This document shows, in pieces, positions 9,070-27,399 of a stretch of 64,000 nucleotides of DNA. How positions within the stretch are numbered: position 1 is the stretch's first letter; each line of letters starts with the position of its first letter. This DNA comes from Sphingopyxis sp. H115. Its GTDB lineage: Bacteria > Pseudomonadota > Alphaproteobacteria > Sphingomonadales > Sphingomonadaceae. The stretch spans positions 62,001 to 126,000 of the forward strand of contig NZ_LNSA01000009.1 in NCBI RefSeq assembly GCF_001468465.1. Direction: 5' to 3'. The notes beneath the pieces were generated by a model. The model searched no databases. It saw only the letters and a program-made list of their open reading frames with translations, and was not told where the DNA came from. The position numbers and the translations under genes were made by a program.

Positions 9070-10440
9070 ATGAACGAGCCCAGCCAGGCGACCGCCCAAG
9101 GTGGCGGCCGGTCGACTGCCATGGCGGCTTTTGCTGCGGTAACCGTGCTTTTCTTCGCCTGGGGCTTCATCACCTCGCTGATCGATCCGCTCGTCGCCGC
9201 GGTGAAAGGGATTTTCACGCTGAGCGATGCCGAGGCACAATTATCGGCCTCGGCCTTTTTCATCGCTTATGGCCTGATGTCCTTTCCCGCCGCCGCGCTG
9301 ATCGCGCGTTTCCATTCGGTACCGTCGATCCTGACCGCGTTGTCGACGATGGTCGTCGGCTGCCTCGTGATGCTCGCCGCAGCCAACCTCGCGGTCTATC
9401 CGCTCGTGCTGGCGGGCCTGTTCATCCTCGCGAGCGGTATCACCATCTTGCAGGTCGCAGCGAACCCGCTCGCGGCGGCGCTGGGCGATCCGAAACGCAG
9501 TCATTTCCGGCTGACCTTCAGCCAGACTTTCAACAGCTTCGGCACCTTCCTCGGCCCGCTTATCGGCGCGCATCTGTTCCTCGAAGGCGTCGAAGTCAAA
9601 GAGGGCACGGTGGTCACCGAAGCGGTGCGCGCGCAGGCGCTGGCGGGTATTGACGCCGCCTATTTCTGGATCTGCGGCCTGATCGTCGCGCTGTTGCTCT
9701 TCTTCTGGGTCAGCCGCCGCATCGTCAACGAGGCGGTGCCGCCCGCCCCGATCGGCGCGCGCGCCGGGATGGGCGAGCTGATCCGCGAGGCCTTTTCCTC
9801 GCGTTGGGCGCTACTCGGCGGGCTCGCCATCTTCCTCTATGTCGGCGCCGAGGTCGCGATCGGGACGCAGATGGCACTGTTCCTCAACAGCGATGCGATC
9901 TGGGGCCAGTCCGACGCACCCTTCGGCGTCCCCCTACTCGGCTTGTTCATGGGCAGCGACGGTGTTTCCGGTGTATCGCTGCAGGAAGCGGGTAAGGCGG
10001 TCGCCTTTTACTGGGGGGGCGCGATGGTCGGCCGCGCGATCGGATCGGTCCTGCTCGCCCGCTTTTCGGCGTCGAAACTGCTGGCGATCTTTACCGCCAT
10101 CGCCGCGCTGCTCTGTCTTTATGTCGTCTTAGTAGGCGGGGTGAGTGCAGGCTTCGTCGCGCTGTCGATCGGCCTGTTCAATTCGATCATGTTCCCGGTG
10201 ATCTTCACGCTGACGCTCGAACGTTCGACCGCGCGCGCCGAGGCGACATCGGGGCTGCTGTGCACCGCGATCGTCGGCGGAGCGGTGATCCCCTATTTCA
10301 TTGGCTTGCTGTCAGGCGCGGTCGGATATGCCGCAGCGCTGATCCTGCCGACCGCCTGTTATGTCGCGCTTTGCGTTTTTGCCATCGCCGCCGGACGCGC
10401 GCCGGCGCAGCAGGCGAGCGCAGGCGTGACGGTTCACTGA
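9070..10440 (+). CDS. FucP-family sugar:proton symporter (MFS)
   Basis: The protein is 456 aa with 12 predicted membrane segments. The FucP/glucose-galactose transporter pattern is clear: FFAWGFITSLIDPLVAAVK, ILQVAANPLAAALG and LTFSQTFNSFGTFLGP. These carriers bring monosaccharides (fucose, glucose, galactose) across the inner membrane with protons. The ATG at 9070 follows GAGG. Context (beta-glucan hydrolases, LacI operator O1) suggests that it takes up glucose or a small glucoside released in the periplasm. The MalK-type ATPase gene begins 22 bp downstream and is probably in the same transcript. Confidence 0.88.
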   Translation: MNEPSQATAQGGGRSTAMAAFAAVTVLFFAWGFITSLIDPLVAAVKGIFTLSDAEAQLSASAFFIAYGLMSFPAAALIARFHSVPSILTALSTMVVGCLVMLAAANLAVYPLVLAGLFILASGITILQVAANPLAAALGDPKRSHFRLTFSQTFNSFGTFLGPLIGAHLFLEGVEVKEGTVVTEAVRAQALAGIDAAYFWICGLIVALLLFFWVSRRIVNEAVPPAPIGARAGMGELIREAFSSRWALLGGLAIFLYVGAEVAIGTQMALFLNSDAIWGQSDAPFGVPLLGLFMGSDGVSGVSLQEAGKAVAFYWGGAMVGRAIGSVLLARFSASKLLAIFTAIAALLCLYVVLVGGVSAGFVALSIGLFNSIMFPVIFTLTLERSTARAEATSGLLCTAIVGGAVIPYFIGLLSGAVGYAAALILPTACYVALCVFAIAAGRAPAQQASAGVTVH

Positions 10441-10462
10441 CGGCACCGGGGCCGAGGAGACC

Positions 10463-11545
10463 ATGACCGGACTGTCGATCCGCGACGCGCGCAAGAGCTT
10501 CGGTGCGACCGAAGTCCTGAAAGGTGTGTCGATCGACGTGGCTGACGGCGAATTCACGGTGATCGTCGGCCCGTCGGGGTGCGGCAAATCGACGCTGCTC
10601 CGTTCGGTCGCGGGGCTCGAGGAATTGACGAGCGGCCATATCGTCATCGGTGACCGCGACGTGACCGATCTTGCGCCGTCCGAGCGCGGGATCGCAATGG
10701 TGTTCCAGTCCTACGCGCTCTATCCGCATCTGTCGGTCTACGAAAATATGGCGTTCGGACTGCGCATCGCAAAGGCCGACAAGGACGCGATCGACACGGC
10801 GGTTCGCCGCGCCGCGACGATATTGAATATCGAAGCGCTGCTGGAGCGCAAACCTGCGGCGCTGTCGGGCGGCCAGCGGCAGCGTGTCGCCATCGGTCGC
10901 GCGATCGTGCGGCAACCGCAAATCTTCTTGTTCGACGAGCCGCTGTCGAACCTCGACGCCGACCTGCGGGTGCGGATGCGCTACGAGTTTGCTGAACTCC
11001 ACCGCAAGCTCGGGACGACAACGCTCTATGTCACGCACGATCAAGTCGAGGCGATGACGCTCGCCGACCGGATCGTCCTGTTGCGCGACGGGCGGATCGA
11101 GCAGACCGGATCGCCGCGCGAACTCTACGAACGGCCGGCGAACATCTTTGTCGCACAGTTTCTGGGCACGCCCCGGATGAACATCGTCGCGGCCACCGCC
11201 GCCGAGGACGGCCGCGCGGCGCTGGCCAACGGGCTCCGCATCGCGCTGCCTCCGCTCGCGAAGCCGCTTGCCGTGGGGACACCACTGTCGATCGGTATCC
11301 GCCCCGACGATATCGCGATCGGCGAGGCTCCGGACGCGCTGACCTTCTCCATTCGCTTTATTGAGCGCCTTGGAGGACTGGCGACGGTGCACCTCGGGGG
11401 CCGCGAAGGCGACGTGATGTTGGCGTGCCAACTGCGCGACGACGGGCGTTTCGATGAGGGCGACAGGATCCATGCCACCTTCCCTCCCGCGCTTTTGCAT
11501 CTGTTCGACGCCGACGACCAAAGACTGGGAAAGATAGGGGAATGA
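10463..11545 (+). CDS. Sugar ABC transporter ATP-binding protein (MalK/UgpC/MsmX type)
   Basis: The protein is 360 aa. Walker A GPSGCGKST, Q-loop MVFQSYALYPH, ABC signature LSGGQRQRVAIGRA, Walker B IFLFDEPLSNLDADLR and H-loop TLYVTHDQVEAMT are all intact, and a C-terminal TOBE/MalK regulatory domain (about 235-360) follows. This subfamily powers carbohydrate importers of the CUT1 class. Its membrane and binding-protein partners are encoded 1-4 kb downstream in a different transcription unit, on the far side of the lacI promoter. GAGGAG lies just upstream of the ATG. Confidence 0.93.
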   Translation: MTGLSIRDARKSFGATEVLKGVSIDVADGEFTVIVGPSGCGKSTLLRSVAGLEELTSGHIVIGDRDVTDLAPSERGIAMVFQSYALYPHLSVYENMAFGLRIAKADKDAIDTAVRRAATILNIEALLERKPAALSGGQRQRVAIGRAIVRQPQIFLFDEPLSNLDADLRVRMRYEFAELHRKLGTTTLYVTHDQVEAMTLADRIVLLRDGRIEQTGSPRELYERPANIFVAQFLGTPRMNIVAATAAEDGRAALANGLRIALPPLAKPLAVGTPLSIGIRPDDIAIGEAPDALTFSIRFIERLGGLATVHLGGREGDVMLACQLRDDGRFDEGDRIHATFPPALLHLFDADDQRLGKIGE

Positions 11546-11562
11546 CCTTGCATTTCGCCTGT

Positions 11563-11576
11563 GTAACCGGTTACGC
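11563..11576. promoter_or_regulatory. LacI-type operator O2 (before lacI and the ABC/GH1 operon)
   Basis: TGTAACCGGTTACG contains a perfect 12-bp palindrome, GTAACCGGTTAC. It lies in the 115-bp gap between the ATPase gene and the lacI-type gene, about 85 bp before the latter's start, which implies autoregulation of the regulator together with the operon behind it. It is the most symmetric of the three copies. Confidence 0.78.
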
Positions 11577-11660: not shown

Positions 11661-12677
11661 ATGGCTACATTGAGGGACGTCGCCCGCGAAGCGGGGGTTT
11701 CGGTGGCGACGGCATCGCGAGCGATCAACGGGCTCGGCAATGTCACCGCGCCGACGCGCGCCGCGGTGATGGCGGCAGTGAAAAAGCTGAACTTCGTGCC
11801 CCACAGCGGCGCGCGCAGCCTGACGCGCAAGAAGACCGACACCGTGGGTGTCATCCTGCCCGACCTGTTCGGGGAATTCTTCTCCGAAATCATTCGCGGC
11901 ATCGATCTTGTCGCGCATGAATCGGGCATGCACCTGCTGCTCGGCAACATGCACGGCAGCACGCACGAAACCGCGGCGGCGATCGCCGCCATGCGCGGGC
12001 GCGTCGACGGGCTGCTCGTCATGCCGCCCGATCTCAAGCCCGAACTGCTGTCCGACTATCTTGATCCAACCTTGCCAACGGTGCTGCTCAATTACGACGC
12101 GGGCTCGCTCGACCTGCCGTTCGTCGCGGTCGACAATTATCGCGGCGCCTATGCGATGACCGAGGCGTTGCTGGCGAGCGGCGCGCGGCAGGTCGTCCAT
12201 ATCGCGGGACCCAAGCACAACCGAGACGCGCGCGACCGCCAGCGCGGCTTCGTCGACGCCATGGCGAAGGTGGGCGGCGTCCGCAATCCGGCGATCCTGC
12301 CGGGCGATTTCTCGGAAGAAAGCGGCGCGAAGGCCGCGCGACTGCTCGTGGAGGGACAGCTCCCCGCCGATGCCGTGTTCGCCGCGAACGACCAGATGGC
12401 GGTCGGGCTGATCGCCGGCTTGGCCGAAGCCGGAAAGTCGGTTCCCGACGATATCATGGTCGCGGGCTTCGACGATATTCCGCTCGCGCGGCACCTCAAC
12501 CCCTCGCTGTCGACGATGCAGGTGCATATCGACCGGCTGGGATCGACCGCGATGATGCTGTTGCTGCGCATATTGCGCGGCGAGACGCTCGGCGCCGCAA
12601 GCGCGACGATCCTGACCCCGGCGCTGGTCGCGCGCGGTACCACGGGCGGGGTGGCGTCGGCCCACACACCGGCATGA
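11661..12677 (+). CDS. LacI-family transcriptional regulator of the glycan locus
   Basis: The protein is 338 aa. The N-terminal LacI HTH (TLRDVAREAGVSVATASRAI) and hinge helix (NFVPHSGARSL) are followed by a periplasmic-binding-protein-like sensor domain with VGVILPDLFGEFFSEIIRGI, VAVDNYRGAYAMTEALL and GFDDIPLARHLNPSLS. It should bind CG-centred palindromes as a dimer and release them on binding a sugar. Three matching sites (8994, 11563, 23384) make it the likely controller of the whole cluster. The stop is 17 bp before the binding-protein ATG, so it is first in an operon of seven genes ending at 18658. Confidence 0.92.
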   Translation: MATLRDVAREAGVSVATASRAINGLGNVTAPTRAAVMAAVKKLNFVPHSGARSLTRKKTDTVGVILPDLFGEFFSEIIRGIDLVAHESGMHLLLGNMHGSTHETAAAIAAMRGRVDGLLVMPPDLKPELLSDYLDPTLPTVLLNYDAGSLDLPFVAVDNYRGAYAMTEALLASGARQVVHIAGPKHNRDARDRQRGFVDAMAKVGGVRNPAILPGDFSEESGAKAARLLVEGQLPADAVFAANDQMAVGLIAGLAEAGKSVPDDIMVAGFDDIPLARHLNPSLSTMQVHIDRLGSTAMMLLLRILRGETLGAASATILTPALVARGTTGGVASAHTPA

Positions 12678-12693
12678 CGCCCGCTTGCGCCCG

Positions 12694-13962
12694 ATGCGGT
12701 TGACGCGGCGCCAGTTGACGGGCGCGCTTTCGGCGCTGCCCCTGTTCCCGGTCCTCGCGGGGTGCGGCGCGCGCGCAGACGGAACGCTCACCGTTTGGGC
12801 GATGGGCAATGAAGCCGCGGCGCTGCCCGCGCTGCTCCGGAATATCGACTGGCCCGCAAACGCACCGCCGATTTCGGTGCAACCCCTGCCCTGGACCGCG
12901 GCACACGAGAAATTGCTCACGGGCTTTGCCGGCGGCTCGCTACCGAGCGTCGGGCAGGTCGGCAACAGCTGGATCGCCGAGCTTGCCGCGATCGGCGCGA
13001 TCGCGCCGGTGCCGGCGCATGCCAAGGCGTTGCTGGCTGACCAGTTCGGGGCAGTAATCGACACCAACAGAATCGCAGGCAAGAGCTGGGGCGTACCCTG
13101 GTATGTCGACACGCGGTTGCAATTTTATCGCAAGGACCTGTTCGAACGCGCCGGCTATGCCGGGCCGCCGGCCGACTGGGCGGGATGGAAGGTCGCACTT
13201 CACAAGGTGAAAAAGGTCGCTGGGGACGGCAATTTCGCCCTCCTCTATCCGCTCAACGAATATGAGCAGCTGACGACGCTCGCGCTGTCGGCAGGCGCGC
13301 GGATGTTGCGCGATGACGGCGGACACGGCGCCTTTTCGGAACCCGAGTTCAAGGCCGCGCTCGCCTTCTACAAATCGCTCTTCGACGAAGGGCTCGCGCC
13401 CCGGATATCGATGGCGCAGATATCCAACGTCTGGACCGAATTCGGCCGCGGTTATTTCAGCCTGTTCCTGTCGGGTCCGTGGACGATCGGCGACATGAAG
13501 AGCCGCCTCGCGCCCGAATTGCAGGATGCGTGGGGCACCGCGCCGAACCCCGGTCCCGACGGCATCGGATCGGCGGCCCCCGGCGGGTCGAGCCTCGTCG
13601 TCTTCGCCGACGGCGCGCATAGCGATGCCGCGTGGGATCTGGTCGCGCGGCTGATGGCGCCGGGCGCGCAGCTCGCGCTGCACAAGGCGACGGGCGACTT
13701 GCCCGCGCGGCGCTCGGTGTGGGAGGCGGCCGGGCTGGCGAGCGACCCGGCGGTCGCGCCCTTCCGCACCCAGCTCGAGCATGCGACCGCACTGCCCAAG
13801 GTGCCCGAATGGGAACGCATCGTCACCGAGATGCAGATCGTCGCCGAACGCATGGTGCGCGGCCAATATGGTATCGACGAGGCAGCGAAGGAAATCGACG
13901 TGCGCGCCGACCGGCTGCTCGAAAAGCGGCGCTGGATGCTCGAGAAAGGGCGCGCGCTATGA
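12694..13962 (+). CDS. Sugar ABC transporter substrate-binding lipoprotein
   Basis: The protein is 422 aa from the ATG at 12694 (a TTG at 12685 is also in frame). Arginines and a hydrophobic stretch precede a lipobox (PVLAGC), so it is a membrane-anchored binding protein. The mature part has the type 1 solute-binding fold of the maltose-binding class, with LTVWAMGNEAAALPALL near the start and later SLFLSGPWTIGDMK and a glycine-rich PGGSSLVVFADG segment. It delivers oligosaccharide to the two permeases encoded immediately downstream (4-bp ATGA overlap with the first). The specific sugar cannot be read, but the context points to a glucan oligomer. Confidence 0.88.
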   Translation: MRLTRRQLTGALSALPLFPVLAGCGARADGTLTVWAMGNEAAALPALLRNIDWPANAPPISVQPLPWTAAHEKLLTGFAGGSLPSVGQVGNSWIAELAAIGAIAPVPAHAKALLADQFGAVIDTNRIAGKSWGVPWYVDTRLQFYRKDLFERAGYAGPPADWAGWKVALHKVKKVAGDGNFALLYPLNEYEQLTTLALSAGARMLRDDGGHGAFSEPEFKAALAFYKSLFDEGLAPRISMAQISNVWTEFGRGYFSLFLSGPWTIGDMKSRLAPELQDAWGTAPNPGPDGIGSAAPGGSSLVVFADGAHSDAAWDLVARLMAPGAQLALHKATGDLPARRSVWEAAGLASDPAVAPFRTQLEHATALPKVPEWERIVTEMQIVAERMVRGQYGIDEAAKEIDVRADRLLEKRRWMLEKGRAL

Positions 13963-14855
13963 CCGCCGCTGGCCGGGCGGGCGAAGCGCGCGCGGGCTGG
14001 GCGATGTCGTCGCCCGCGCTCGCGGCGATCCTGCTCTTCTTCGTCCTGCCCGCGCTCGCATCGCTGGCCCTGAGCTTCACCGATTTCGACATTTATGCGC
14101 TCGCCGACATCGGCAACCTGCGCTTCGTTGGCTTCGAGAATTATGAAAGGCTGACCCAGAACCCACTGTTCTGGAAAGCGATGACGAACACATTGATCTT
14201 CGTCGCGGTCGGTACGCCCTTCATCGTCGCGATGTCGCTGTTTGCCGCGATGCTTGTCAATTCACGCTGGCTGAAATGGCGCCCGATATGGCGCGTCGCG
14301 CTGTTCGCCCCCTATGTGACGACGCTCGTCGCAACCGCGGTCGTGTGGCGCTACCTGCTCCACACGCGCTACGGGCTGCTCAACTATCTCCTCTCCTTCT
14401 TCGGCGTGCCGCCGGTCGACTGGCTGGGGAGCCCGACCGCATCGTTGCCCGCGATCCTGATCTTCGTCGGGTGGAAGACCTTCGGCTATAACATGATCAT
14501 CTTCCTCGCCGCGCTCCAGACGGTGCCGCGCGAGCTCGACGAGACGGCGCGGATCGACGGTGCAGGCTGGTTCGCGCGGCTGCGTCACGTCACCCTGCCC
14601 GCGATCGCCCCGACCTTGCTGCTTGTGTCGGTGCTCACCGTCGCGGGCATGTTCCAGCTGTTCGCCGAACCCTATGTGATGACGCAGGGTGGTCCCGCGC
14701 AGTCGACCGTCACCATCCTCTATTTCATGTATGAGGAGGGGTTCAAATGGTGGAACCTCGGGTCAGGCGCGGCGGTCGCTTTCCTGCTCTTCCTCTGCAT
14801 TCTCGCCGTCACGCTGGTGCAATTGACGCTCGCGAAGCGGAGCGGCGCGATATGA
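13959..14855 (+). CDS. Sugar ABC transporter permease (MalF/UgpA type)
   Basis: The protein is 298 aa with about six membrane helices, from AAILLFFVLPALASLAL to the C-terminal AVAFLLFLCILAVTLVQL. The cytoplasmic EAA loop that contacts the ATPase is visible as DETARIDGAGWFARLRHVTLP. The start ATG overlaps the binding-protein stop (ATGA) and the stop overlaps the next permease start in the same way. Together with its neighbour it forms the channel of a CUT1-type importer. Confidence 0.9.
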   Translation: MTAAGRAGEARAGWAMSSPALAAILLFFVLPALASLALSFTDFDIYALADIGNLRFVGFENYERLTQNPLFWKAMTNTLIFVAVGTPFIVAMSLFAAMLVNSRWLKWRPIWRVALFAPYVTTLVATAVVWRYLLHTRYGLLNYLLSFFGVPPVDWLGSPTASLPAILIFVGWKTFGYNMIIFLAALQTVPRELDETARIDGAGWFARLRHVTLPAIAPTLLLVSVLTVAGMFQLFAEPYVMTQGGPAQSTVTILYFMYEEGFKWWNLGSGAAVAFLLFLCILAVTLVQLTLAKRSGAI

Positions 14856-15667
14856 TCCTGCGCCGCTGGTCCGTCACCTTGCTCGCCGCGCTTGTCGCGC
14901 TGCTCACGATCGCGCCCCTCCTTTGGATGGTCTCGGTCAGCTTGATGGCGCGCGGGGAGGCGGCGCAATTTCCGCCGCCGCTGTGGCCTGCAAGCCCGAC
15001 GCTGGAGAATTATCGCGAACTGTTCGGAAACTTCGGCGTCGGGCGCTTCCTCTTCAACAGCATCCTCGTCTCGACGCTCGCGACGGCGCTGGCGCTGCTT
15101 TTCACAATCCCCGCAGGCTATGCCTTTGCCAAGCTGCGCTTCAAGGGCCGCGACGCGATTTTCCGTATGCTCATCGCCGCACTCGTCGTGCCGGGGCAGA
15201 TCGGCATGCTGCCGCTGTTCCTCGAACTCAAGGCGATGGGGCTGGTCAACAGCTACGCCGGCGCGCTAGTGCCTTGGCTCGCGGGCATTTTCGGCATCTT
15301 CCTCGTCCGCCAATATTGCCTGTCGATCCCCGACGAGATGCTCGAGGCGGCGCGTATCGACGGCGCGACCGAAACGCAGATATTGCGCCGCATCGTGCTG
15401 CCGATCCTGACCCCGATCATCGTCACGCTGGCGCTCTATGTCTTCCTGTCGAGCTGGAACGATTTCATGTGGCCGCTGATCATCCTGGCTGATCAGCAGC
15501 TCTACACGCTGCCCGTCGCGCTCGCCGCGAACAGTCGCCAGAATGTGCAGGATTATGAGATCATGATGGCCGGCGCGGTCGTCACCACCCTGCCCGTCCT
15601 CATCCTCTTCCTCGCTCTCCAGCGCTACTATCTGAGCGGGCTCCTCACCGGGAGCGTGAAGGGATGA
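14852..15667 (+). CDS. Sugar ABC transporter permease (MalG/UgpE type)
   Basis: The protein is 271 aa with six membrane helices. It has the family's N-terminal single helix followed by a large periplasmic loop (PPPLWPASPTLENYRELF) and the EAA motif LEAARIDGATETQILRRIVLP. The sequence SSWNDFMWPLIIL is typical of the MalG group. It overlaps its partner permease by 4 bp. The two channel subunits, the upstream binding protein and the ATPase encoded at 10463 make a complete importer. Confidence 0.9.
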   Translation: MILRRWSVTLLAALVALLTIAPLLWMVSVSLMARGEAAQFPPPLWPASPTLENYRELFGNFGVGRFLFNSILVSTLATALALLFTIPAGYAFAKLRFKGRDAIFRMLIAALVVPGQIGMLPLFLELKAMGLVNSYAGALVPWLAGIFGIFLVRQYCLSIPDEMLEAARIDGATETQILRRIVLPILTPIIVTLALYVFLSSWNDFMWPLIILADQQLYTLPVALAANSRQNVQDYEIMMAGAVVTTLPVLILFLALQRYYLSGLLTGSVKG

Positions 15668-15690
15668 GGTGTTCAACCAAGGAAAAACGA

Positions 15691-16446
15691 ATGACATATT
15701 GGACCGCGGCGCTGCTGGGCCTCGCCCTCGCCACCTCTCCCGCCGCCGCAAGGACGACGACGCCCGTGCCGGTCGAAGGCCAGACGCCGCAGCAGCCCGT
15801 TGCGCCGGGCAATTATCCTTACCAGCTGTTCATCCCCAAAGGCTATCTGACCGATACGGCCAAGCAATATCCGCTGCTTATCTTCCTCCACGGCTCAGGC
15901 GAACGCGGCGACGATATCACGAAGGTCAAGGTGCACGGTCCACCGAAGATCGCCGATCGCGATCCCGATTTTCCCTTCCTCACCGTCTCGCCCCTGCTCG
16001 GCTCCGATCAGGACTGGGATATCGACAAGCTCGACGCGCTGGTCGACCGGATCGCGAAGACCTACCGCGTCGACGCCGCGCGTATCTATCTCACCGGGCT
16101 CAGCCGCGGCGGTCACGCGAGCTGGCGCTGGGCGATCGCCGAACCGAAGCGCTTCGCCGCCGTCGCAGCGGTAGCGGGGCGCGGCAATCCGGGCGAGGCG
16201 TGCCGCCTGATGGACCTCCCCGTCTGGGCCTTTCACGGCGACCGCGACGATGTCGTCGTCCCCGAAGGCAGCTTCGCCATGGCGCGCGCGATCCGCGCGT
16301 GCGGCGGGCGCAAGGTCCGCCTGACCATCTACCCCGACCTCGGCCACAATGCCTGGGACCCCGCCTATGATGATTCGGCGCTCTACGCATGGCTGCTCGA
16401 ACAAAAACTTCCCTCTCCCACGGATGGCGACAAGGACAAAAAATGA
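15691..16446 (+). CDS. Secreted alpha/beta hydrolase (esterase/PHB-depolymerase-like)
   Basis: The protein is 251 aa from the ATG at 15691, which has AAGGA 7 nt upstream; an ATG at 15664 overlaps the permease. A signal peptide (ALLGLALATSPAAA) is followed by an alpha/beta-hydrolase domain with oxyanion region LIFLHGSGERGDD, nucleophile elbow GLSRGG (Ser138), the acid in HGDRDDVVVP (Asp186/187) and the catalytic histidine in LGHNAW (His219). Homologues are annotated as prolyl oligopeptidase-family or dienelactone hydrolase-like esterases. In this operon it could remove acyl decorations from a glycan; this is inference. Confidence 0.8.
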   Translation: MTYWTAALLGLALATSPAAARTTTPVPVEGQTPQQPVAPGNYPYQLFIPKGYLTDTAKQYPLLIFLHGSGERGDDITKVKVHGPPKIADRDPDFPFLTVSPLLGSDQDWDIDKLDALVDRIAKTYRVDAARIYLTGLSRGGHASWRWAIAEPKRFAAVAAVAGRGNPGEACRLMDLPVWAFHGDRDDVVVPEGSFAMARAIRACGGRKVRLTIYPDLGHNAWDPAYDDSALYAWLLEQKLPSPTDGDKDKK

Positions 16447-17789
16447 CGCAGACGATTTTCCCCGACGATTTCCTGTGGGGCGCCGCGACTGCCGCCTATC
16501 AGATCGAGGGATCGCCGCTCGCCGATGGTGCGGGTGCAAGCATCTGGCAACGCTTCAGCCACGACCCGCGGCTGATGGCGGCGAAGGGCGACACCGGCGA
16601 TATCGCCTGCGATCATTATAACCGCATGCCCGCCGACGTCGCGCTGATGAAGGAGCTGGGGCTGAAAGCCTATCGCTTCAGCGTAAATTGGGGTCGCGTT
16701 TTACCCGAGGGGATCGGGCGCATCAACGAACCCGGCCTCGGTTTTTACGAGCGGCTCGTCGACGAACTGCTCAAGCATGATATCGAGCCCTTGCTGACGC
16801 TCCATCATTGGGACCTCCCCGCAGCGCTCGACGACAAGGGCGGCTGGCTCAATCGCGACAGTGCAGACTGGTTCGCCGAATATGGCTCGGTGATGTACCG
16901 CCGGCTCGACGGCCGCGTGAAGAAATGGGTGACGCTCAACGAACCCTGGGTGATCACCGATGGCGGCTATCTTCACGGCGCGCTTGCACCCGGACATCGC
17001 AACCTGTTCGAAACCCCGATCGCGAGTCACAATCTGATGCGCGCGCACGGCCGCGCGGTGCAGGTCTATCGCAGCGAAGGCGCGCACGAAATCGGCCTCG
17101 TCGTAAATATCGAGCCCAAATATCCGGCGAGCGACAGCGCCGAGGATGTCGCCGCGACCGCGCGTGCCCACGCCTATATGAACCGCCAATATCTCGATCC
17201 GGCGCTGAAGGGCAGCTACCCTGACGAACTCGCCGAGATATTCGGCGAAGCCTGGCCGCAGTGGCCGGCCGAAGACCTGAAGGACATCTGCCAGCCGCTC
17301 GATTTCATCGGGATCAATTATTACACGCGCAACGTCGTAAAGGCCGACCCGAACCAGTGGCCGGTCGGCGCGTCGCCGGTGCGGCAGAATGCGACGCATA
17401 CGACGACCGACTGGGAAGTCTATCCGCCCGCGCTCACCGACATGCTCGTCTGGTTCCGCGACACCTATGGCGATATCCCCGTCTATATCACCGAAAATGG
17501 CGCCGCCTTCTACGACCCGCCGAAGGCCGGGCCCGACGGGATCGACGATCCGCTCCGCTGCGATTACCTCCGCACCCATATTTCGGCGATCGGCGATGCG
17601 ATCCGCCAGGGCGTCGACGTGCGCGGCTATATGGCGTGGTCGCTGCTCGACAATCTCGAATGGTCGCTGGGTTTCTCGAAGCGCTTCGGAATCGTCCATG
17701 TCGATTATGAGACGCAGGTTCGCACGCCGAAACGCAGCGCGCGCTTCTACAGTCATGTCATCGCGGCGAACGGCGGGAATCTCGGATGA
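16443..17789 (+). CDS. GH1 beta-glucosidase
   Basis: The protein is 448 aa, normal GH1 length, with no signal peptide, so it is cytoplasmic. The start FPDDFLWGAATAAYQIEG is diagnostic. The acid/base glutamate sits in TLNEPW (Glu167) and the nucleophile in YITENGA (Glu351); the substrate-binding YRFSVNWGRVLPEG and the C-terminal WSLLDNLEWSLGF are conserved. It retains stereochemistry and hydrolyses beta-glucosides such as imported disaccharides. It is translationally coupled to the esterase upstream and the EEP protein downstream by ATGA overlaps. Placement after the ABC importer suggests that it splits the imported oligosaccharide. Confidence 0.95.
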   Translation: MTQTIFPDDFLWGAATAAYQIEGSPLADGAGASIWQRFSHDPRLMAAKGDTGDIACDHYNRMPADVALMKELGLKAYRFSVNWGRVLPEGIGRINEPGLGFYERLVDELLKHDIEPLLTLHHWDLPAALDDKGGWLNRDSADWFAEYGSVMYRRLDGRVKKWVTLNEPWVITDGGYLHGALAPGHRNLFETPIASHNLMRAHGRAVQVYRSEGAHEIGLVVNIEPKYPASDSAEDVAATARAHAYMNRQYLDPALKGSYPDELAEIFGEAWPQWPAEDLKDICQPLDFIGINYYTRNVVKADPNQWPVGASPVRQNATHTTTDWEVYPPALTDMLVWFRDTYGDIPVYITENGAAFYDPPKAGPDGIDDPLRCDYLRTHISAIGDAIRQGVDVRGYMAWSLLDNLEWSLGFSKRFGIVHVDYETQVRTPKRSARFYSHVIAANGGNLG

Positions 17790-20224: not shown

Positions 20225-20235
20225 TTGTCAGCCGG

Positions 20236-23200
20236 TCAGAAAGAGAAGCCGGCCGAAAGCTTTACAGTGCGGGGCGGATTCCCGCCAACGCCGTTGCCCG
20301 AAATATTCAGGTAGTTGGGGGACGACGGGTCATTATTGTAATCGACATAGTTCCGGTCGTTGAACAGGTTCAGAATGTCGACGCGCAGCCGCAAGCGCGA
20401 TTCCTCGCTGATGAAGCGGAACGGGACATATTTGGTGATGGCGATGTCCATCTGGCGAAAACCCCAGCGATCGCCGTTCCCGTCGGCTTCGTTCGAAATC
20501 ACCTCGCGGATCGGATTTGCCCCGCCGACGCTGCGGAACGCCTTCAGATAGGGCGGCGATGCGATCTGGAACTTGCCCGAGAGCGTCACCCCAATCGGAA
20601 GATCGACCGACCCCGTAGCGACTAGCCGGTGCTTGCGCACCCCGCTCGACCGCGTGATCGGATAATCCTCCAGCGACGGGAAATCCAAGCTGAAAACCTC
20701 GCCGAAGTTCCGGTTCTCCTCGGCCTCGGTATAGGTGTAGGTCGCCGAAAAGGTCCACGGCGAGGATGCCGAGTAATTTTTGACCAACTTCAGATACCCG
20801 GAATCGGCACTCGTCTCGAGCCCGTTGGTCCCGATGATGATCGAACCGAAGCCCGGAGGTGCGAAACCGAACGGCGAATCGGGTACTGCCGGTGCCGGCG
20901 GGAAGAAGCTGCCGTCGGGCCGACGATTGCCGAGCAGATAGGCAAAGCCGTCCTTGCTCTCAATATGGCTATACCCGACTTCGGCTTCGAACAGCGGCGT
21001 CACGCGGGCGCGGAAACCAAGGCTGAACTGGTCCGAATAGGGAACCTTCAGATCATTGTCGATAAAGCGCAGTTCACGCCCGCCGCCAGGGCCGGCCTGA
21101 GTCAGCAACTGAGCGCGACCGGCTTCGGTCAGATAGACGGGATCAAATGGAACGCAGGTCGGTCCTGCGACGCATGTGTTGTTCGGATCGCCCGTGATGA
21201 AGTTGAACGTCCGGGTCGTGTACGAACCGACGCTGATTTCCTGTTGCAGGAAGTCGAACTGGTTGCGGTCGTACGATCGGCCGAAACCGCCGAACAGCAC
21301 ATAGCGTGCCTCGTCGTCGAGTTCGTAGCTGAAGCCAATGCGTGGTTGCCACGCCCCAGTGAACGCCTTGCGCTCCGAACCCGTCGATATGAAGTCGTTA
21401 ATGTCGTAGTCGGCATTGACCAGGTTCGGATAATTGGCCGGCGACACCGCATTCACTGCGTCGGCGGGGTGGACGAAGTCAAGATAGGCCGGAGTCCGCT
21501 CATAATCCCATCGCACGCCGAGGTTCAACGTCAACCGGTCGGTGACCTCCCAATCGTCCTGGACGTAGATGCCGAACTGAAAATTCTTCGAGTTGACGAT
21601 CGGGCTGCCGTTGCCGGTCTGTGCGCCGAACTGGACGCGATAGGGAATATCGTCGTTGAAGCTGCCGCCACCCGGATTGAATGCGGGATTATAGGTATAG
21701 ACCGGGTTGAAATTGCCGAGTTGCAACGTGTTCAACTCGACCCATTTCGCCTTCGCGCCGACCTTGATCGTGTGGCCTTCGAACCCGGTCCAGGTGAAGT
21801 CATTCTGGACACCCCAGCCCTTCTGACCCTTTTCCTGATAGTTGCCGCCGCCGCCAATGCGCAGGATCTCCTCACGCACGACCACGCCGGGTTGCGGATT
21901 TGTCGGCGACGGTCCGGCATAGGCGAAGAGCCGCGCATCTTCGAAAACGACGGGTGTAGGCGCCCATTTGACGTCCTCGTATGTCACCTTGAAATCGTTG
22001 ATCCAACTGTCGGCCGTGTGCTCCCAGCGCCCGGTGACACGCAGTTCCTCGACATCCTGCGAACTGATCGTGCTGCGGGCATTGATCCCGGAGCCGAGGA
22101 ATTCACCGCTTTCCTTGCGATATTTGCCCGACACTTCGATAAGATCGCTGTTGGAAGGCTGGAAACTGAGTTTGCCGAAATAGAGATCTTCGTTGAAGGT
22201 CGCGTTCGTCGGCCCGAACACGCCCTGATATTCGGACGGGAAATAGGTAACGGGCAGGCTGAGCCCCGGGCGGATATCAACCGGATTTTCTTGCCGCTTG
22301 CCTTCGTAGGTTACGAAGAAGTGCAGCATGTCCTTGATGATCGGTCCGCCGAGCGCGCCGCCGAACTGGAAATCCCTGGTCTTGACCTTGGACGTCCTGA
22401 GTTCGTTGGGCCGCGCATCGCGAAGGCCTTGATCGGTATAATCGATGAAGGCTTCGCCGTGGAACTCATTGGTACCCGACTTGGTTACCGCCGTGATCGC
22501 GACGGAGCTCACCTGATCGAACTCGGCCTTATAGTTCGACGACAGGACGCGATATTCGCCGACCGCCAACTGCGGGAACGGATTGCCCTGCGTCGAATCC
22601 TGACCGGTGACGCCGTTTTTCAGGACATAATCCTTCTGTCCCACGCCATCGATGAAGATGTTGACGCTGCGGCTGTCCTGCGCGCCGCCTTGCAGGCGCG
22701 ATTGACCGTTGCCGCCGGTTACGAATTGGACGCCCGGAGCAAGGTCGGCGAAGGCCAGGAAGTTGCGGTTGTTCTGCGGCAGCACCTCGATCTGACGCTG
22801 AGTGATGTTTGAGCCGACTTCGCCGCCCTCCATCGACCGTATCCGCGAACCGGTGACGATGATCGCATCGTCGCCGGCCGAAGCAATGTCCGGCTGCGAA
22901 AAGTCGAAGTCCAGAACCGCACTCTGCCCGACCGAGAGGGTGAATTCGTCAGTGCGACGCACCCCGCCAGGGGTGGTCAGCTCGAGGCGATAGGTGCCGA
23001 CGGGAAGCGACGCGATATTGTAGCTGCCATTTTCACCGACGGTGACGCTACGCGTCAGGCCCGTATCGACGTTGATCGCGGTGACCTGCGACACCCCGCC
23101 ATCGGCCTTCACCGTCCCGCGAAGCGAAGCGTTCGACACCTGGGCATGCGCGGGGACCGCAACCGCGACGGCCAGCGCAGCTGCCGCGCTGCTCCACGCG

Positions 23201-23271
23201 AGCGCCACCGCGAGCGAACGTGCGCGCGACCGGCGTGCGGAAACAGTTTGAAAATCATGCGAAAACTTCAC
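20236..23271 (-). CDS. TonB-dependent receptor with N-terminal carboxypeptidase-like domain (Oar type)
   Basis: The protein is 1011 aa. A signal peptide ends near AVPAHAQ (about residue 44). It is followed by a carboxypeptidase-regulatory-like beta-sandwich (about 46-130, with GSYNIASLPVGTYRLEL), a TonB-box-like DDAIIVTGSRIR, the plug (about 137-260, LAPGVQFVTGG and INIFIDGVGQ-like segment) and a long beta-barrel ending in the aromatic KLSAGFSF. These receptors import large ligands across the outer membrane with energy from TonB-ExbBD. Its position between the GH144 and GH3 genes, with operator O3 in the shared upstream gap, makes it the likely outer-membrane porter for the glucan oligosaccharide. 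No SusD-like partner is present. Confidence 0.92.
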   Translation of the reverse strand: MKFSHDFQTVSARRSRARSLAVALAWSSAAAALAVAVAVPAHAQVSNASLRGTVKADGGVSQVTAINVDTGLTRSVTVGENGSYNIASLPVGTYRLELTTPGGVRRTDEFTLSVGQSAVLDFDFSQPDIASAGDDAIIVTGSRIRSMEGGEVGSNITQRQIEVLPQNNRNFLAFADLAPGVQFVTGGNGQSRLQGGAQDSRSVNIFIDGVGQKDYVLKNGVTGQDSTQGNPFPQLAVGEYRVLSSNYKAEFDQVSSVAITAVTKSGTNEFHGEAFIDYTDQGLRDARPNELRTSKVKTRDFQFGGALGGPIIKDMLHFFVTYEGKRQENPVDIRPGLSLPVTYFPSEYQGVFGPTNATFNEDLYFGKLSFQPSNSDLIEVSGKYRKESGEFLGSGINARSTISSQDVEELRVTGRWEHTADSWINDFKVTYEDVKWAPTPVVFEDARLFAYAGPSPTNPQPGVVVREEILRIGGGGNYQEKGQKGWGVQNDFTWTGFEGHTIKVGAKAKWVELNTLQLGNFNPVYTYNPAFNPGGGSFNDDIPYRVQFGAQTGNGSPIVNSKNFQFGIYVQDDWEVTDRLTLNLGVRWDYERTPAYLDFVHPADAVNAVSPANYPNLVNADYDINDFISTGSERKAFTGAWQPRIGFSYELDDEARYVLFGGFGRSYDRNQFDFLQQEISVGSYTTRTFNFITGDPNNTCVAGPTCVPFDPVYLTEAGRAQLLTQAGPGGGRELRFIDNDLKVPYSDQFSLGFRARVTPLFEAEVGYSHIESKDGFAYLLGNRRPDGSFFPPAPAVPDSPFGFAPPGFGSIIIGTNGLETSADSGYLKLVKNYSASSPWTFSATYTYTEAEENRNFGEVFSLDFPSLEDYPITRSSGVRKHRLVATGSVDLPIGVTLSGKFQIASPPYLKAFRSVGGANPIREVISNEADGNGDRWGFRQMDIAITKYVPFRFISEESRLRLRVDILNLFNDRNYVDYNNDPSSPNYLNISGNGVGGNPPRTVKLSAGFSF

Positions 23272-23382: not shown

Positions 23383-23412
23383 TTGTAACCGGTTTCACGA
23401 TGACTGTATAGA
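23383..23412 (+). promoter_or_regulatory. LacI-type operator O3 overlapping a candidate promoter for the GH3 gene
   Basis: TGTAACCGGTTTCA (23384-23397) is the third copy of the shared box, in the 247-bp gap between the divergent TonB receptor and GH3 genes. It overlaps TTGTAA (23383-23388), which with TATAGA (23407-23412, 18 bp spacing) resembles a promoter reading towards GH3. The same site may also control the receptor on the other strand. Confidence 0.72.
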
Positions 23413-23518: not shown

Positions 23519-25837
23519 ATGCCGCCGATGAAGCGCAATCTCACATGCCTGACACTGGCCACCTTGATGGTGGCAGGACAGCTCGCCCCAACCCCGCTGC
23601 TCGCGAAGCCAGCGTCGAGCGCGACTGAAAGGGCGCCGGTGGATTCGGCGGGCTGGACGCGCGCCGATCCGAAAATGGACCGCTTCGTCGCCGACTTGAT
23701 GGCAAAGATGACGCTGGACGAGAAAATCGGGCAATTGTCGCTCCTGACGAGCGACTGGGATTCGACCGGCCCCACGATGCGCCAAGGCTATCAGGACGAT
23801 ATCCGCAAGGGCCGCATCGGATCGATCTTCAACGCCTTCACAGCCAAATATACGCGCGACCTGCAGCGGCTCGCGGTCGAAGAAACGCGGCTGAAAATCC
23901 CCCTGCTCTTCGGCTATGACGTCGTCCATGGCCACCGCACCATCTTTCCTATCTCGCTGGGCGAATCGGCGAGCTGGGACCTGGATGCCATTGAAAAGTC
24001 AGCGCGAATCTCCGCAACCGAAGCCGCAGCCGAAGGCATCCACTGGACCTTCGCGCCAATGGTCGACGTCGCGCGCGACCCGCGCTGGGGCCGCATGTCC
24101 GAAGGCGCCGGCGAAGATGTCTTCCTTGGCAGCAAGATCGCTGCCGCGCGCGTGCGGGGGTTCCAGGGCGACGACCTGAAACGCGTCGATACGGTGCTCG
24201 CGACCGCCAAGCATTTCGCCGCCTATGGCGCGGCGCAAGCGGGCCGCGATTACCATACCGTCGATATTTCGGAGCGCACGCTGCGCGACGTCTATCTGCC
24301 GCCGTTCAAGGCGGCGGCCGATGCCGGCGCAGCAACCTTCATGACCTCGTTCAACGAATATGACGGCGTGCCGGCGTCGGGCAGCCACTATCTGCTGACC
24401 GACGTGCTGCGCAAGAAATGGGGCTTCAAGGGCTTCATCGTAACCGATTACACGTCGATCAACGAAATGGTCTCGCACGGCTATTCGAAGGATCTGGAGC
24501 AGGCCGGCGAACAGGCGATCAACGCCGGTGTCGACATGGATCTGCAAGGCGCGGTGTTCATGGACCACCTCGCGCGGTCGGTTGCCGAGGGCAAGGTCGA
24601 CGTGAAACGCGTCGATGCCGCGGTAAAAGCGATCCTCGAGATGAAGTACCGCCTCGGCCTATTCGAGGATCCCTATCGCTATTCGGACGAGGCGCGCGAA
24701 AAGGCGACCGTCTATCGCGCCGATTTCTTCGAAGCGGCGCGCGACGTTGCGCGCAAGTCGATTGTGCTGCTGAAAAACAAGGACGGCGCCCTTCCGCTCG
24801 CCGCATCTGCAAAGTCGATCGCGCTGATTGGGCCGCTCGGCGACAGCAAGGAGGATATGATCGGCAGCTGGGCCGCAGCAGGCGACCGCAAGACGCGGCC
24901 GGTCACCCTGCTCGAAGGCCTGCAGGCGCGCGCACCCAAGGGAACGACGGTCGCTTATGCCAAGGGTGCGGGCTATCAGTTCACCGACGCGGGTAAGACC
25001 GACGGCTTCGCCGAAGCGATCGCGCTCGCGCAGAAATCCGATGTAATCGTCGCCGCGATGGGCGAGCATTGGAACATGACCGGCGAAGCAGCGAGCCGCA
25101 CCTCGCTCGACCTGCCGGGTAACCAGCAGGCTTTGCTGGAGGAACTCAAGAAAACCGGCAAGCCGATCATCCTCGTTCTGATGAGCGGACGACCGAACAG
25201 CATCGAATGGGCCGACGCCAATGTCGATGCGATCCTTGAGGCCTGGTATCCCGGGACGATGGGCGGCCATGCCGTCGCGGATGTCCTTTATGGCGACTAT
25301 AATCCGTCGGGCAAATTGCCCGTCACCTTCCCCCGCAACGTCGGACAGGTGCCGATCTATTACGACATGAAAAACACCGGGCGGCCGATCAAGCCAGAGG
25401 AACCCAACGCGAAATATGTCTCGCGCTATCTCGATACGCCGAACACGCCGCTTTATCCCTTCGGCTACGGCCTCAGCTACACCAGCTTCGCCTATTCGCC
25501 GGTGACGCTCGACAAGACGAAAATTCGCCCAGGCGAGCCGCTGACCGCCAGCGTCACCGTGACCAATAGCGGCGCGCGCGACGGCGAGGAAGTCGTCCAG
25601 CTGTACGTCCGCGACCTTGTCGGATCGGTGACGCGCCCGGTCAAGGAGCTCAAGGGCTTTGAAAAGCTGATGCTGAAGAAGGGCGAGAAACGAACGGTCC
25701 GCTTCACCCTGACCGACGCCGATTTGGCCTTCACGCGGCAGGATATGAGCTGGGGCAGCGAACCCGGGCAGTTCAAGCTGTGGGTCGGCCCCTCCTCGGC
25801 CGAAGGGCAGGAAGCCGGCTTCGAGCTGACCGAGTGA
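23519..25837 (+). CDS. bglX: GH3 beta-glucosidase (BglX-like), periplasmic
   Basis: The protein is 772 aa, with a signal peptide, a GH3 N-terminal TIM barrel (about 50-370), a C-terminal alpha/beta sandwich and a final fibronectin III-like domain (about 660-765, ASVTVTNSGARDGEEVVQLYV). The catalytic nucleophile is the aspartate in GFIVTDYTSI (Asp310), and KHF (231-233) and the ARDPRWGR block are intact. It releases terminal glucose from beta-glucans or oligosaccharides in the periplasm. AAGGA is 6 nt before the ATG at 23519. It stands under operator O3 and is followed 2 nt later by the sulfatase start. Confidence 0.95.
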   Translation: MPPMKRNLTCLTLATLMVAGQLAPTPLLAKPASSATERAPVDSAGWTRADPKMDRFVADLMAKMTLDEKIGQLSLLTSDWDSTGPTMRQGYQDDIRKGRIGSIFNAFTAKYTRDLQRLAVEETRLKIPLLFGYDVVHGHRTIFPISLGESASWDLDAIEKSARISATEAAAEGIHWTFAPMVDVARDPRWGRMSEGAGEDVFLGSKIAAARVRGFQGDDLKRVDTVLATAKHFAAYGAAQAGRDYHTVDISERTLRDVYLPPFKAAADAGAATFMTSFNEYDGVPASGSHYLLTDVLRKKWGFKGFIVTDYTSINEMVSHGYSKDLEQAGEQAINAGVDMDLQGAVFMDHLARSVAEGKVDVKRVDAAVKAILEMKYRLGLFEDPYRYSDEAREKATVYRADFFEAARDVARKSIVLLKNKDGALPLAASAKSIALIGPLGDSKEDMIGSWAAAGDRKTRPVTLLEGLQARAPKGTTVAYAKGAGYQFTDAGKTDGFAEAIALAQKSDVIVAAMGEHWNMTGEAASRTSLDLPGNQQALLEELKKTGKPIILVLMSGRPNSIEWADANVDAILEAWYPGTMGGHAVADVLYGDYNPSGKLPVTFPRNVGQVPIYYDMKNTGRPIKPEEPNAKYVSRYLDTPNTPLYPFGYGLSYTSFAYSPVTLDKTKIRPGEPLTASVTVTNSGARDGEEVVQLYVRDLVGSVTRPVKELKGFEKLMLKKGEKRTVRFTLTDADLAFTRQDMSWGSEPGQFKLWVGPSSAEGQEAGFELTE

Positions 25838-25839
25838 CG

Positions 25840-27399
25840 ATGCGGTTTCGCCTTCCGGTTGCCCTCGCCCTCCCGCTCGCTTTCGTTTCCGCGGTGGGAG
25901 CGCAGCCGGAGCGGCGACCGAACATCGTCTATATTATGTCCGATGATCACGCCTATCAGGCGATTTCGGCCTATGGGTCGCCGCTATCGAAGCTGGCGCC
26001 GACGCCCAATATCGACCGGATTGCCAAGAATGGCGCGATCTTCACGCAGAGCTTCGTCGGCAATTCGCTTTGCGGCCCCAGCCGCGCGACGCTGCTCACA
26101 GGGCGTCAGAGCAACGCTCACGGTTTCACGCAGAACGGCCAGCGCTTCGACAACCATGTCTGGGTGTGGCCGCGCGCGCTGAGCCAGGCGGGCTATGCCA
26201 CCGCAATGTTCGGCAAATGGCACATCAACTACTCACCCGACGGCATCGGCTTCGACGACTGGAAGGTGCTCGACGACCAGGGCGAATATTATAATCCCGA
26301 CATCATCACGCCCAAGGGGCGCAGCATCGTAGAAGGCTATGCCACCGACCTCATCACGCAATACAGCCTCGACTGGCTGAAAAACGGGCGCGACAAATCC
26401 AAGCCCTTCGCGATCCTTATCCACCACAAGGCGCCGCACCGCAATTTCATGCCAGCCCTGCGCCATGTACAGAAATATCAGGGCGTGACCTTCCCCGTGC
26501 CCGGCAATTATTTCGACGATTATGCGGGCCGCACCGCCGCGGGCACGCAGGAAATGAACATCTATCGCGACATGTATGAGGGGCACGACCTCAAGATGAC
26601 CGTCGCAAAGGGATCGGCGCAGCTCCGCTACAATCGCTGGCCCGGCGCATTCGACCGGATGACGCACGCCCAGCAGGCCGAATGGGACGCGGCGATGCAG
26701 GCCGACAACGACCGGCTCAACGCCGCGCCGCTGTCGAACCGCGACCTCGCGCTGTGGAAATATCAGCGTTACATGCAGCAATATCTGGGCACGATCGCGG
26801 CGGTCGACGAAGGCGTCGGTGCGGTGCTCGACTATCTCGGTGAAAGCGGCCTCGATCGGAACACCATCGTCGTCTACACCTCCGACCAGGGCTTCTATCT
26901 TGGCGAGCATGGCTGGTTCGACAAGCGCTTCATCTATGAAGAATCGATGCGCACGCCCTTCTTGATCCAGTATCCGGGGCATATCCGCCCGGGCACCCGC
27001 ATCGCGGCACCGATCCAGAATATCGACTATGCGCCGACTTTCCTCGACTATGCCGGGGTCAAGGGTCCGGCGACGATCCAGGGTCGGTCGATGATGCCGC
27101 TACTGACGGGCGGCACCCCGCGCGACTGGCGCAAGGACGTCTATTATCATTATTACGAGTTTCCGGGATTTCATGCGGTACGCGCTCATTATGGCGTGCG
27201 CGGCGAGCGATATAAGCTCGTGCGCTTCTATGGCGAAGGCCTCGACGCGTGGGAGTTTTACGACCTCAGGACCGACCCGCACGAAATGGACAACCGGATC
27301 GCCGATCCCGCGATGAAGGGCGCGATCGCGCGCATGAAGCGGCGGCTGATCGAACTGCGCCGCGAATATCAAGATACCAGCGGCCCCGCCATTTCCTGA
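25840..27399 (+). CDS. Secreted sulfatase (S1 family, Cys-type)
   Basis: The protein is 519 aa with a signal peptide (LPVALALPLAFVSAVGAQ). The formylglycine signature is NSLCGPSRATLLTG, so Cys78 in C-x-P-x-R should be converted to formylglycine by a maturation enzyme not seen in this window. The metal-binding MSDDHAYQ (Asp35-Asp36) and later TSDQGFYLGEHGWFDKR are conserved. It resembles glycan sulfatases of the type acting on N-acetylglucosamine-6-sulfate or related sugars rather than aryl-sulfatases; the precise S1 subfamily is a guess. It is directly downstream of GH3 (2-nt gap), implying co-transcription and a sulfated or contaminating sulfated substrate. Confidence 0.88.
   Translation: MRFRLPVALALPLAFVSAVGAQPERRPNIVYIMSDDHAYQAISAYGSPLSKLAPTPNIDRIAKNGAIFTQSFVGNSLCGPSRATLLTGRQSNAHGFTQNGQRFDNHVWVWPRALSQAGYATAMFGKWHINYSPDGIGFDDWKVLDDQGEYYNPDIITPKGRSIVEGYATDLITQYSLDWLKNGRDKSKPFAILIHHKAPHRNFMPALRHVQKYQGVTFPVPGNYFDDYAGRTAAGTQEMNIYRDMYEGHDLKMTVAKGSAQLRYNRWPGAFDRMTHAQQAEWDAAMQADNDRLNAAPLSNRDLALWKYQRYMQQYLGTIAAVDEGVGAVLDYLGESGLDRNTIVVYTSDQGFYLGEHGWFDKRFIYEESMRTPFLIQYPGHIRPGTRIAAPIQNIDYAPTFLDYAGVKGPATIQGRSMMPLLTGGTPRDWRKDVYYHYYEFPGFHAVRAHYGVRGERYKLVRFYGEGLDAWEFYDLRTDPHEMDNRIADPAMKGAIARMKRRLIELRREYQDTSGPAIS

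What the first reader, a model, noticed from the sequence alone, without database searches (positions are those of the whole stretch)
9070..27399. Possible beta-1,2-glucan utilisation locus with two inner-membrane import routes
A GH144-type glucanase, GH3 and GH1 beta-glucosidases, an Oar-like TonB receptor, a complete CUT1 ABC importer and a FucP-type symporter are encoded together. Full sugar ABC importers of this kind are, to my knowledge, uncommon in sphingomonad glycan loci, which more often use MFS carriers. The combination suggests that oligosaccharides (ABC, then cytoplasmic GH1) and free glucose (after periplasmic GH3) are both taken up.
Basis: partly seen in the sequence, partly recalled or inferred. 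Interest (0 to 1): 0.7.

Follow-up and report, generated by a model that had tools for sequence, protein, structure and literature searches.

The report
Bacterial beta-1,2-glucan scavenging gene cluster
This stretch of DNA looks like a complete, jointly controlled set of genes for taking up and digesting beta-1,2-linked glucose chains made by other bacteria; its core is shared by many Gram-negative bacteria and resembles gene clusters already described, so it is a well-supported new example rather than a new kind of system.

Summary
The glucanase is closest to XCC2207 (XcSGL), reported in print as specific for beta-1,2-glucan, and keeps four landmark residues. The binding protein is closest to the X. 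citri protein called MalE (ligand listed as unknown in print) and then to Lin1841, which binds sophoro-oligosaccharides. In the window's genus the same 26 of 60 genomes carry both. A 13-base LacI-type operator occurs exactly three times in the 4.49 Mb genome, once at each of three promoter regions of the locus. Searches of the own genome for opgG and for a cyclic-glucan-synthase-like protein found none, so the substrate is probably foreign. CUT1-type ATPases are uncommon in the family (14 of 199 genomes above cut-off), but GH144 is the usual neighbour of this importer. The dual import route rests on linkage and co-regulation. Esterase, EEP and sulfatase hint at decorated glucans; untested. No activity or ligand was measured.

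The parts
8994..9006 (+). LacI-type operator 1, TGTAACCGGTTGC, 64 bp before the MFS start codon
   Evidence: one of only three exact matches in the 4.49 Mb genome
9070..10440 (+). FHS-family MFS carrier (GluP/FucP-like), inferred glucose symporter; second inner-membrane route
   Evidence: linked in 22 of 25 relatives
10463..11545 (+). MalK/UgpC-type ATPase of the CUT1 importer; only OB_MalK match in the genome
11562..11574 (+). LacI-type operator 2, TGTAACCGGTTAC, before lacI
11661..12677 (+). LacI-family regulator, inferred repressor of the locus
12685..13962 (+). solute-binding protein with lipobox LAGC, inferred sophoro-oligosaccharide binder (ATG at 12694 is the likelier start)
13959..14855 (+). 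ABC permease 1
14852..15667 (+). ABC permease 2
15664..16446 (+). exported alpha/beta-hydrolase (esterase-like)
16443..17789 (+). GH1 beta-glucosidase without signal peptide, inferred cytoplasmic
17786..18658 (+). exported endonuclease/exonuclease/phosphatase (EEP) family protein; one of four solved relatives is named mannosyl-6-phosphatase
18662..20167 (-). GH144 endo-beta-1,2-glucanase, exported; E240, D157 and the clan F and Y conserved
20236..23271 (-). Oar-like TonB-dependent receptor, inferred operon with GH144
23384..23396 (+). LacI-type operator 3, TGTAACCGGTTTC, in the divergent TBDT/GH3 promoter region
23519..25837 (+). GH3 beta-glucosidase (BglX-like) with signal peptide, inferred periplasmic (ATG at 23528 possible)
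25840..27399 (+). S1-type sulfatase with formylglycine motif CGPSR; accessory gene, in 11 of the 18 relatives whose stretch reaches this place

Best explanation
The locus is a LacI-controlled utilisation system for beta-1,2-glucans (linear or cyclic) made by other bacteria. Inferred route: the Oar-like TonB receptor brings glucan or long fragments across the outer membrane; the exported GH144 cuts them into sophoro-oligosaccharides; the binding protein hands these to the CUT1 importer; cytoplasmic GH1 hydrolyses them to glucose. In parallel, periplasmic GH3 releases glucose that the FHS carrier can import. LacI sits on one operator motif at all three promoter regions and releases it when inducer enters. 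The exported esterase, EEP protein and sulfatase probably strip substituents from natural glucans. Shown here: gene content, homology, conserved linkage, co-occurrence, operator placement. Inferred: all transport and enzyme specificities, the regulator-operator match, and the order of steps.
For: GH144: phmmer best hit XCC2207/8XUL, E 5.5e-161. That enzyme (XcSGL) is described as narrowly specific for beta-1,2-glucans (PMC12102758, passages); residues equivalent to CpSGL E211, E142 (D here), F268 and Y330 are present. Binding protein: phmmer ranks 3uor first, then Lin1841 at E 4.6e-49 against 4.4e-30 for the next; Foldseek ranks 1-2 are 3uor, ranks 3-9 seven Lin1841 chains, five with sophoro-oligosaccharides and two ligand-free. 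Linkage: GH144 with the binding protein and both permeases in 39 of 39 unnamed-genome stretches; GH144 in 74 of 80 named loci and GH1 at 61-78% identity in 42 of 80. Co-occurrence: the same 26 of 60 genomes of the genus carry both. Operator: three exact genome-wide matches, all here; its 11-base core is kept at 24 of 24 TBDT/GH3 regions and 23 of 25 lacI regions, and before the MFS in 20 of the 22 relatives with MFS (17 of 19, 3 of 3). Foreign substrate: no MdoG/OpgG match and a single PF10091 match in the genome.
Against: No activity, binding or expression data. Lin1841 is only 28% identical. The closest solved binding protein, 3uor, is titled MalE, and one paper calls it a putative maltose/trehalose binder. 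The GH3 is of the broad BglX kind. The residues said to set GH1 specificity in SGR_2426 could not be compared. Sulfatase and EEP are not explained by plain beta-1,2-glucan. The 80 named loci are the best 80 of 569 relatives, ranked against one query. Six of 80 lack GH144: L111 and L146, where almost no upstream sequence is held, and four with flanks present (L124, L139, L142 Nitrospirota; L155 Massilia). Operator 2 was not seen in L057 and L065; the core is missing before the MFS in L045 and L066 and before the ATPase in L062. The motif is absent at the corresponding places of nearly all stretches outside the genus (L067 is the clear exception). With one mismatch the reversed control pattern gives 7 strand-hits against 9 for the motif in the genome, so only the exact matches and their placement carry weight.
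Confidence: 0.85

Rival explanations
1. The locus serves another beta-glucan or a plant or fungal glucoside (laminarin, cello-oligosaccharides), with GH144 a side activity.
For: GH1 and GH3 are broad families; solved relatives of the binding protein further down the list bind cello- and laminari-oligosaccharides.
Against: No endo-glucanase family of another linkage was found in the locus. GH144 is the usual neighbour of the importer, and XcSGL showed no activity on CM-cellulose, barley beta-glucan or glucomannan in the table rows that I saw whole.
Confidence: 0.06
2. The importer is a maltose/trehalose transporter, as the name MalE of the X. citri homologue suggests.
For: Entry 3uor is titled MalE; [quoted passage not shown] A GH97 (alpha-glucosidase-type) gene lies in the operon of 3 of 25 relatives.
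Against: The same paper lists its binding specificity as unknown, and PMC13084667 lists the structure as apo. Maltose binders rank below Lin1841 by sequence and by fold. No alpha-glucosidase family was found in the window locus.
Confidence: 0.04
3. The locus recycles the cell's own periplasmic glucans.
For: An exported GH144 could act on self glucans.
Against: No OpgG family match in the own genome (E. coli control positive) and only one PF10091 match; PF10091 does detect 2,820-2,869 aa proteins of the size of cyclic glucan synthases in three other genomes of the genus, none of them among the 26 importer carriers. The assembly has 63 contigs, so absence is not proof.
Confidence: 0.03
4. Only the ABC route matters; the MFS carrier is an incidental neighbour.
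For: The MFS is missing from 3 of 25 relatives (L057, L059, L062) and a homologue was found in 1 of 80 named loci.
Against: It is linked in 22 of 25 relatives and has the locus operator upstream in 20 of those 22; GH3 with a signal peptide would release periplasmic glucose. I first put this rival at 0.25, when I counted 19 of 25; the mended count lowered it.
Confidence: 0.2

Closest known systems
Ignavibacterium album beta-1,2-glucan cluster (PMC8861115, passages seen)
   Same: GH144, a putative GH3, a Lin1841-like binding protein of an ABC importer; TonB-dependent entry was already speculated there.
   Different: That cluster has two GH144, GH94 and GH35; the passages I saw name no GH1, LacI operator, MFS route, EEP or sulfatase.
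Streptomyces griseus SGR_2422-2427 (PMC12369401, abstract, passages and section 2.6 seen)
   Same: Lin1841-like binding protein, permeases, a GH1 acting on sophoro-oligosaccharides, a beta-1,2-glucanase family member and an esterase-like gene.
   Different: Gram-positive; GH193 instead of GH144; no TonB receptor or GH3 named in the passages seen.
Listeria innocua lin1839-1841 (known from passages in PMC12369401 and PMC8861115)
   Same: Sophoro-oligosaccharide binding protein and a GH3 beta-glucosidase.
   Different: A phosphorylase (SOGP) instead of GH144 in those passages; binding protein 28% identical.
Xanthomonas/Stenotrophomonas LacI-TBDT-GH144-SBP-permease-permease locus (L084, L107, L130)
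   Same: Same core; XCC2207 of X. campestris, the best relative of the window GH144, is biochemically characterised.
   Different: Core genes in one direction; a protein of about 1,050 aa of unknown function follows the permeases (L107, L130); in L084 ugpC lies about 10 kb downstream. EEP proteins of another type occur in L073-L075 and L169.

Membership tests
GH144 beta-1,2-glucanase | PF10091 domain with general acid (CpSGL E211), candidate base (CpSGL E142) and clan residues F268 and Y330 | tested here: met
   298 bits; E240, D157, F and Y aligned; residues named in PMC12102758
GH144 beta-1,2-glucanase | hydrolysis specific for beta-1,2-glucan | not testable with these tools
   needs recombinant enzyme; nearest assayed relative XcSGL
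CUT1 sugar ABC importer | binding protein, two permeases, and a MalK-type ATPase with OB/TOBE domains | tested here: met
   ATPase motifs recalled from memory found
Lin1841-type sophoro-oligosaccharide binding protein | closest to Lin1841 among solved proteins of known ligand, by sequence and fold | tested here: met
Lin1841-type sophoro-oligosaccharide binding protein | ligand contact residues | not tested
   the 2018 paper was not held
SGR_2426-type GH1 beta-1,2-glucosidase | Gln229 and Trp291 at subsite +1 | tested here: inconclusive
   reference sequence not available; two actinobacterial loci tried held no GH1 match
beta-1,2-glucan utilisation locus | beta-1,2-glucanase linked to an oligosaccharide importer and a beta-glucosidase, with signs of common control | tested here: met
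S1 sulfatase | CxPxR formylglycine motif and a candidate maturation protein in the genome | tested here: met
   CGPSR; PF03781 matches in two open frames of the own genome, a family that is not limited to maturation enzymes (recalled); substrate unknown

The most novel reading that the evidence does not exclude
The locus is built for natural, decorated periplasmic or cyclic glucans: the exported esterase, the EEP phosphohydrolase and the sulfatase remove acyl, phosphate-linked and sulfate groups so that GH144 products fit the importer. Variants with GH97 in the operon (3 of 25 relatives) or, elsewhere, the unknown C1 family (58 of 80 named loci) deal with alpha-linked ring closures. This would be a decorated-glucan scavenging system with several enzyme activities not yet assigned.
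Probability: 0.3. Interest if true: 0.65.

Novelty: new member of a known kind. Interest (0 to 1): 0.45.

Why it matters
Beta-1,2-glucans matter in symbiosis and infection, and who eats them is little known. This locus and its relatives indicate that many Gram-negative bacteria carry a dedicated sophoro-oligosaccharide ABC importer, and suggest that the X. citri binding protein called MalE, whose ligand is listed as unknown, belongs to it. The locus gives candidate enzymes for removing glucan decorations and an exact operator to test.

Tried and rejected
The Lin1841 structure paper was not held. A literature search for a sulfated glucan as substrate of the sulfatase gave only noise (listing seen). 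Searches with XCC2207, XAC2309-2311, XCC2206 and beta-1,2-glucan/TonB/Sphingomonas terms (listings seen) showed no paper on this locus type in Xanthomonas or sphingomonads; the held library lacks most subscription journals, and I opened only the papers cited. Self-recycling of glucan was considered and set aside. I first took the GH97 gene of L061, L063 and L065 to stand in place of the MFS, because the stretches ended there; fetching more upstream DNA showed MFS, then GH97, then the ATPase in 3 of 3, and the counts were mended. A search for the C1 family in the own genome was negative but had no positive control in the same call. The profile of C1 hit only its F5/8- and CBM-like parts in the PDB; its model resembles GH94 and GH15 proteins among others at about 12% identity, too weak to name an activity.
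Full report
What is there. The window lies at G000:C9:62001-126000 of a 4.49 Mb assembly in 63 contigs. By layout there are three units: MFS-ATPase-LacI-SBP-permease-permease-EST-GH1-EEP on the plus strand, with 4-base overlaps at five joints from SBP to EEP; TBDT-GH144 on the minus strand; and GH3-sulfatase on the plus strand, divergent from TBDT. Operon membership is inferred from spacing. Signal sequences were judged by eye: GH144, GH3, EST, EEP and sulfatase look exported; the SBP has a lipobox (LAGC); GH1 has no signal.

Glucanase. The PF10091 protein scores 298 bits. Its best solved relative is 8XUL, XCC2207 (E 5.5e-161), the XcSGL of PMC12102758. I saw passages and section 3.2 of that paper; it describes XcSGL as narrowly specific for beta-1,2-glucans. 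In the alignment CpSGL E211 (general acid) pairs with E240 here, E142 (candidate base) with D157, and F268 and Y330 are matched. It is the only PF10091 match in the genome.

Binding protein. phmmer ranks 3uor first (E 3.1e-114), Lin1841 second (4.6e-49) and CbpB third (4.4e-30). An AlphaFold2 model from 24 sequences (mean pLDDT 88.7) searched with Foldseek gives 3uor at ranks 1-2, then seven Lin1841 chains at ranks 3-9 (five with sophoro-oligosaccharides, two ligand-free), then CbpB and a beta-glycoside binder; maltose binders come lower. 3uor is called MalE in its title; PMC7676653 lists its specificity as unknown and calls it a putative maltose/trehalose binder, and PMC13084667 lists it as apo (passages).

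Conserved linkage. With the binding protein as query, 26 of 99 genomes matched at E 1e-30, all of the window's genus: 25 and the own one. In a phylum sample, 15 of 398 matched at E 1e-40: the own one and 14 outside the genus. I fetched 39 stretches of up to 20 kb around these 25 and 14. In 39 of 39 the binding protein, both permeases and GH144 are present; a TBDT homologue in 37 of 39 and LacI in 38 of 39. GH144 is found in 74 of 80, C1 in 58, TBDT in 52, LacI in 52, GH1 in 42, ATPase in 25; some stretches are cut by contig ends. The six without GH144 are L111 and L146 (108 and 7 bases upstream held), L124, L139 and L142 (Nitrospirota) and L155 (Massilia). Three places occur in both sets (L080 = L094, L076 = L130, and L079 matching L112 at 99.3%), so the counts should not be summed. 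The 80 include Xanthomonas, Stenotrophomonas, Dyella, Duganella, Massilia, Sphingomonas koreensis, Hyalangium and MAGs assigned to other phyla.

Co-occurrence. In the 60 genomes of the window's genus, GH144 at E 1.7e-86 or better occurs in exactly the 26 genomes that have the binding protein (set comparison). Since the genes are linked and the genomes related, this is not an independent statistical test. Three further genomes of the genus have a weak PF10091 match inside frames of 2,820-2,869 aa, probably cyclic glucan synthases (inferred from length). Two of the 39 genomes of other families in the order have a strong PF10091 match without the importer (G081, G082).

Regulation. TGTAACCGGTTNC occurs exactly at 8994-9006, 11562-11574 and 23384-23396 and nowhere else in the genome. 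With one mismatch there are nine strand-hits, seven of them at four places in this locus (the fourth inside GH3), against seven for the reversed control pattern. In the window a shorter pattern with one mismatch gives 9 strand-hits, 8 of them in the locus, against 0.48 expected; 0 of 100 shuffles reach 9. In the same-genus stretches the 11-base core is present in 24 of 24 examinable TBDT/GH3 regions and 23 of 25 lacI regions, and before the MFS in 20 of 22 loci with MFS (17 of 19; 3 of 3 in the extended stretches). Of the three loci without MFS, two have it before the ATPase. The motif is absent from the matching places of nearly all stretches outside the genus; L067 is the clear exception. 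That LacI binds this motif is inferred.

How common is the importer. PF17912 (OB_MalK) was found in 15 of 199 genomes of the family, 14 above the cut-off; the own genome has one, this ATPase. The domain marks only ATPases of this type, so importers with other ATPases would be missed.

Accessory genes. In the 25 relatives EEP is present in 25, EST in 24 and MFS in 22 (19 whole in the first stretches, 3 more upstream of a GH97). The sulfatase is present in 11 of 18 stretches that reach its place; in the other 7 an MFS_3-type gene (family scanned on one of the seven) follows GH3 directly, as one follows the sulfatase in the window. GH97 lies between MFS and ATPase in 3 of 25 (Pfam on one), and a GH2 between EEP and GH144 in 7 of 25 (Pfam on one). 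In the 80 named loci no match to the window's EEP or sulfatase was found, and EST in 5, GH3 in 3, MFS in 1. The four solved relatives of EEP include a mannosyl-6-phosphatase; those of the sulfatase begin with 9s03, 7p24 and a GlcNAc-6-sulfatase. PF03781 proteins exist in the genome. That these enzymes strip substituents from glucans is my inference; that such glucans carry succinate, phosphoglycerol and phosphoethanolamine is stated in PMC11842490 (passage), but sulfate is not in that list.

Prior art. PMC8861115 (passages) describes an Ignavibacterium cluster with two GH144, a putative GH3, GH94, GH35 and a Lin1841-like binding protein, and speculates on TonB entry and ABC import. PMC12369401 (abstract, passages, section 2.6) describes the Streptomyces GH1/ABC/GH193 cluster. 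The present locus is therefore a new member of a known kind, with a two-route layout and accessory enzymes that I did not see described in the searches named.

Verdict. Function as beta-1,2-glucan utilisation: 0.85. Two inner-membrane routes in use: about 0.7, raised slightly from 0.65 because the mended count links the MFS in 22 rather than 19 of 25 relatives. Decorated-glucan handling: about 0.3.

Noticed in passing
window 20236-23271 and L042-L066: The TonB receptor has two allele classes in the genus: 84-94% identity to the window (15 loci) and 67-71% (9 loci), with L064 alone at 68%. The closest relative L042 is 95% (SBP) and 97% (GH144) identical but 70% in the receptor; its first ~280 residues are 88-100% identical per 40-residue block and most of the rest 35-78%, suggesting barrel exchange.
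   Followed up: partly
L130:13067-16222 and homologues in 58 of 80 named loci: A conserved protein of about 1,050 aa, mostly following the permeases, in loci outside the genus. Pfam sees only F5/8-type domains (on the L069 homologue); its model resembles GH94 and GH15 enzymes, among others, at about 12% identity. Possibly an undescribed glycosidase family of the beta-1,2-glucan pathway.
   Followed up: partly
[quoted passage not shown] they are not among the importer carriers.
   Followed up: no
window 50920-63993: Cupin/JmjC protein, GH20, GH18, three tryptophan-halogenase-like proteins and a TonB receptor lie close together, like a chitin or amino-sugar locus.
   Followed up: no
window 35708-43496: TonB receptor, NMO-like protein, RPE65-type carotenoid oxygenase, AMP-binding (ligase-like) and thiolase-like genes in a row: perhaps catabolism of an aromatic or apocarotenoid compound.
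   Followed up: no
L061, L063, L065 (extended as L176, L178, L177): A GH97-type gene lies between the MFS and ATPase genes of the operon, hinting at an alpha-linkage in the natural substrate.
   Followed up: partly
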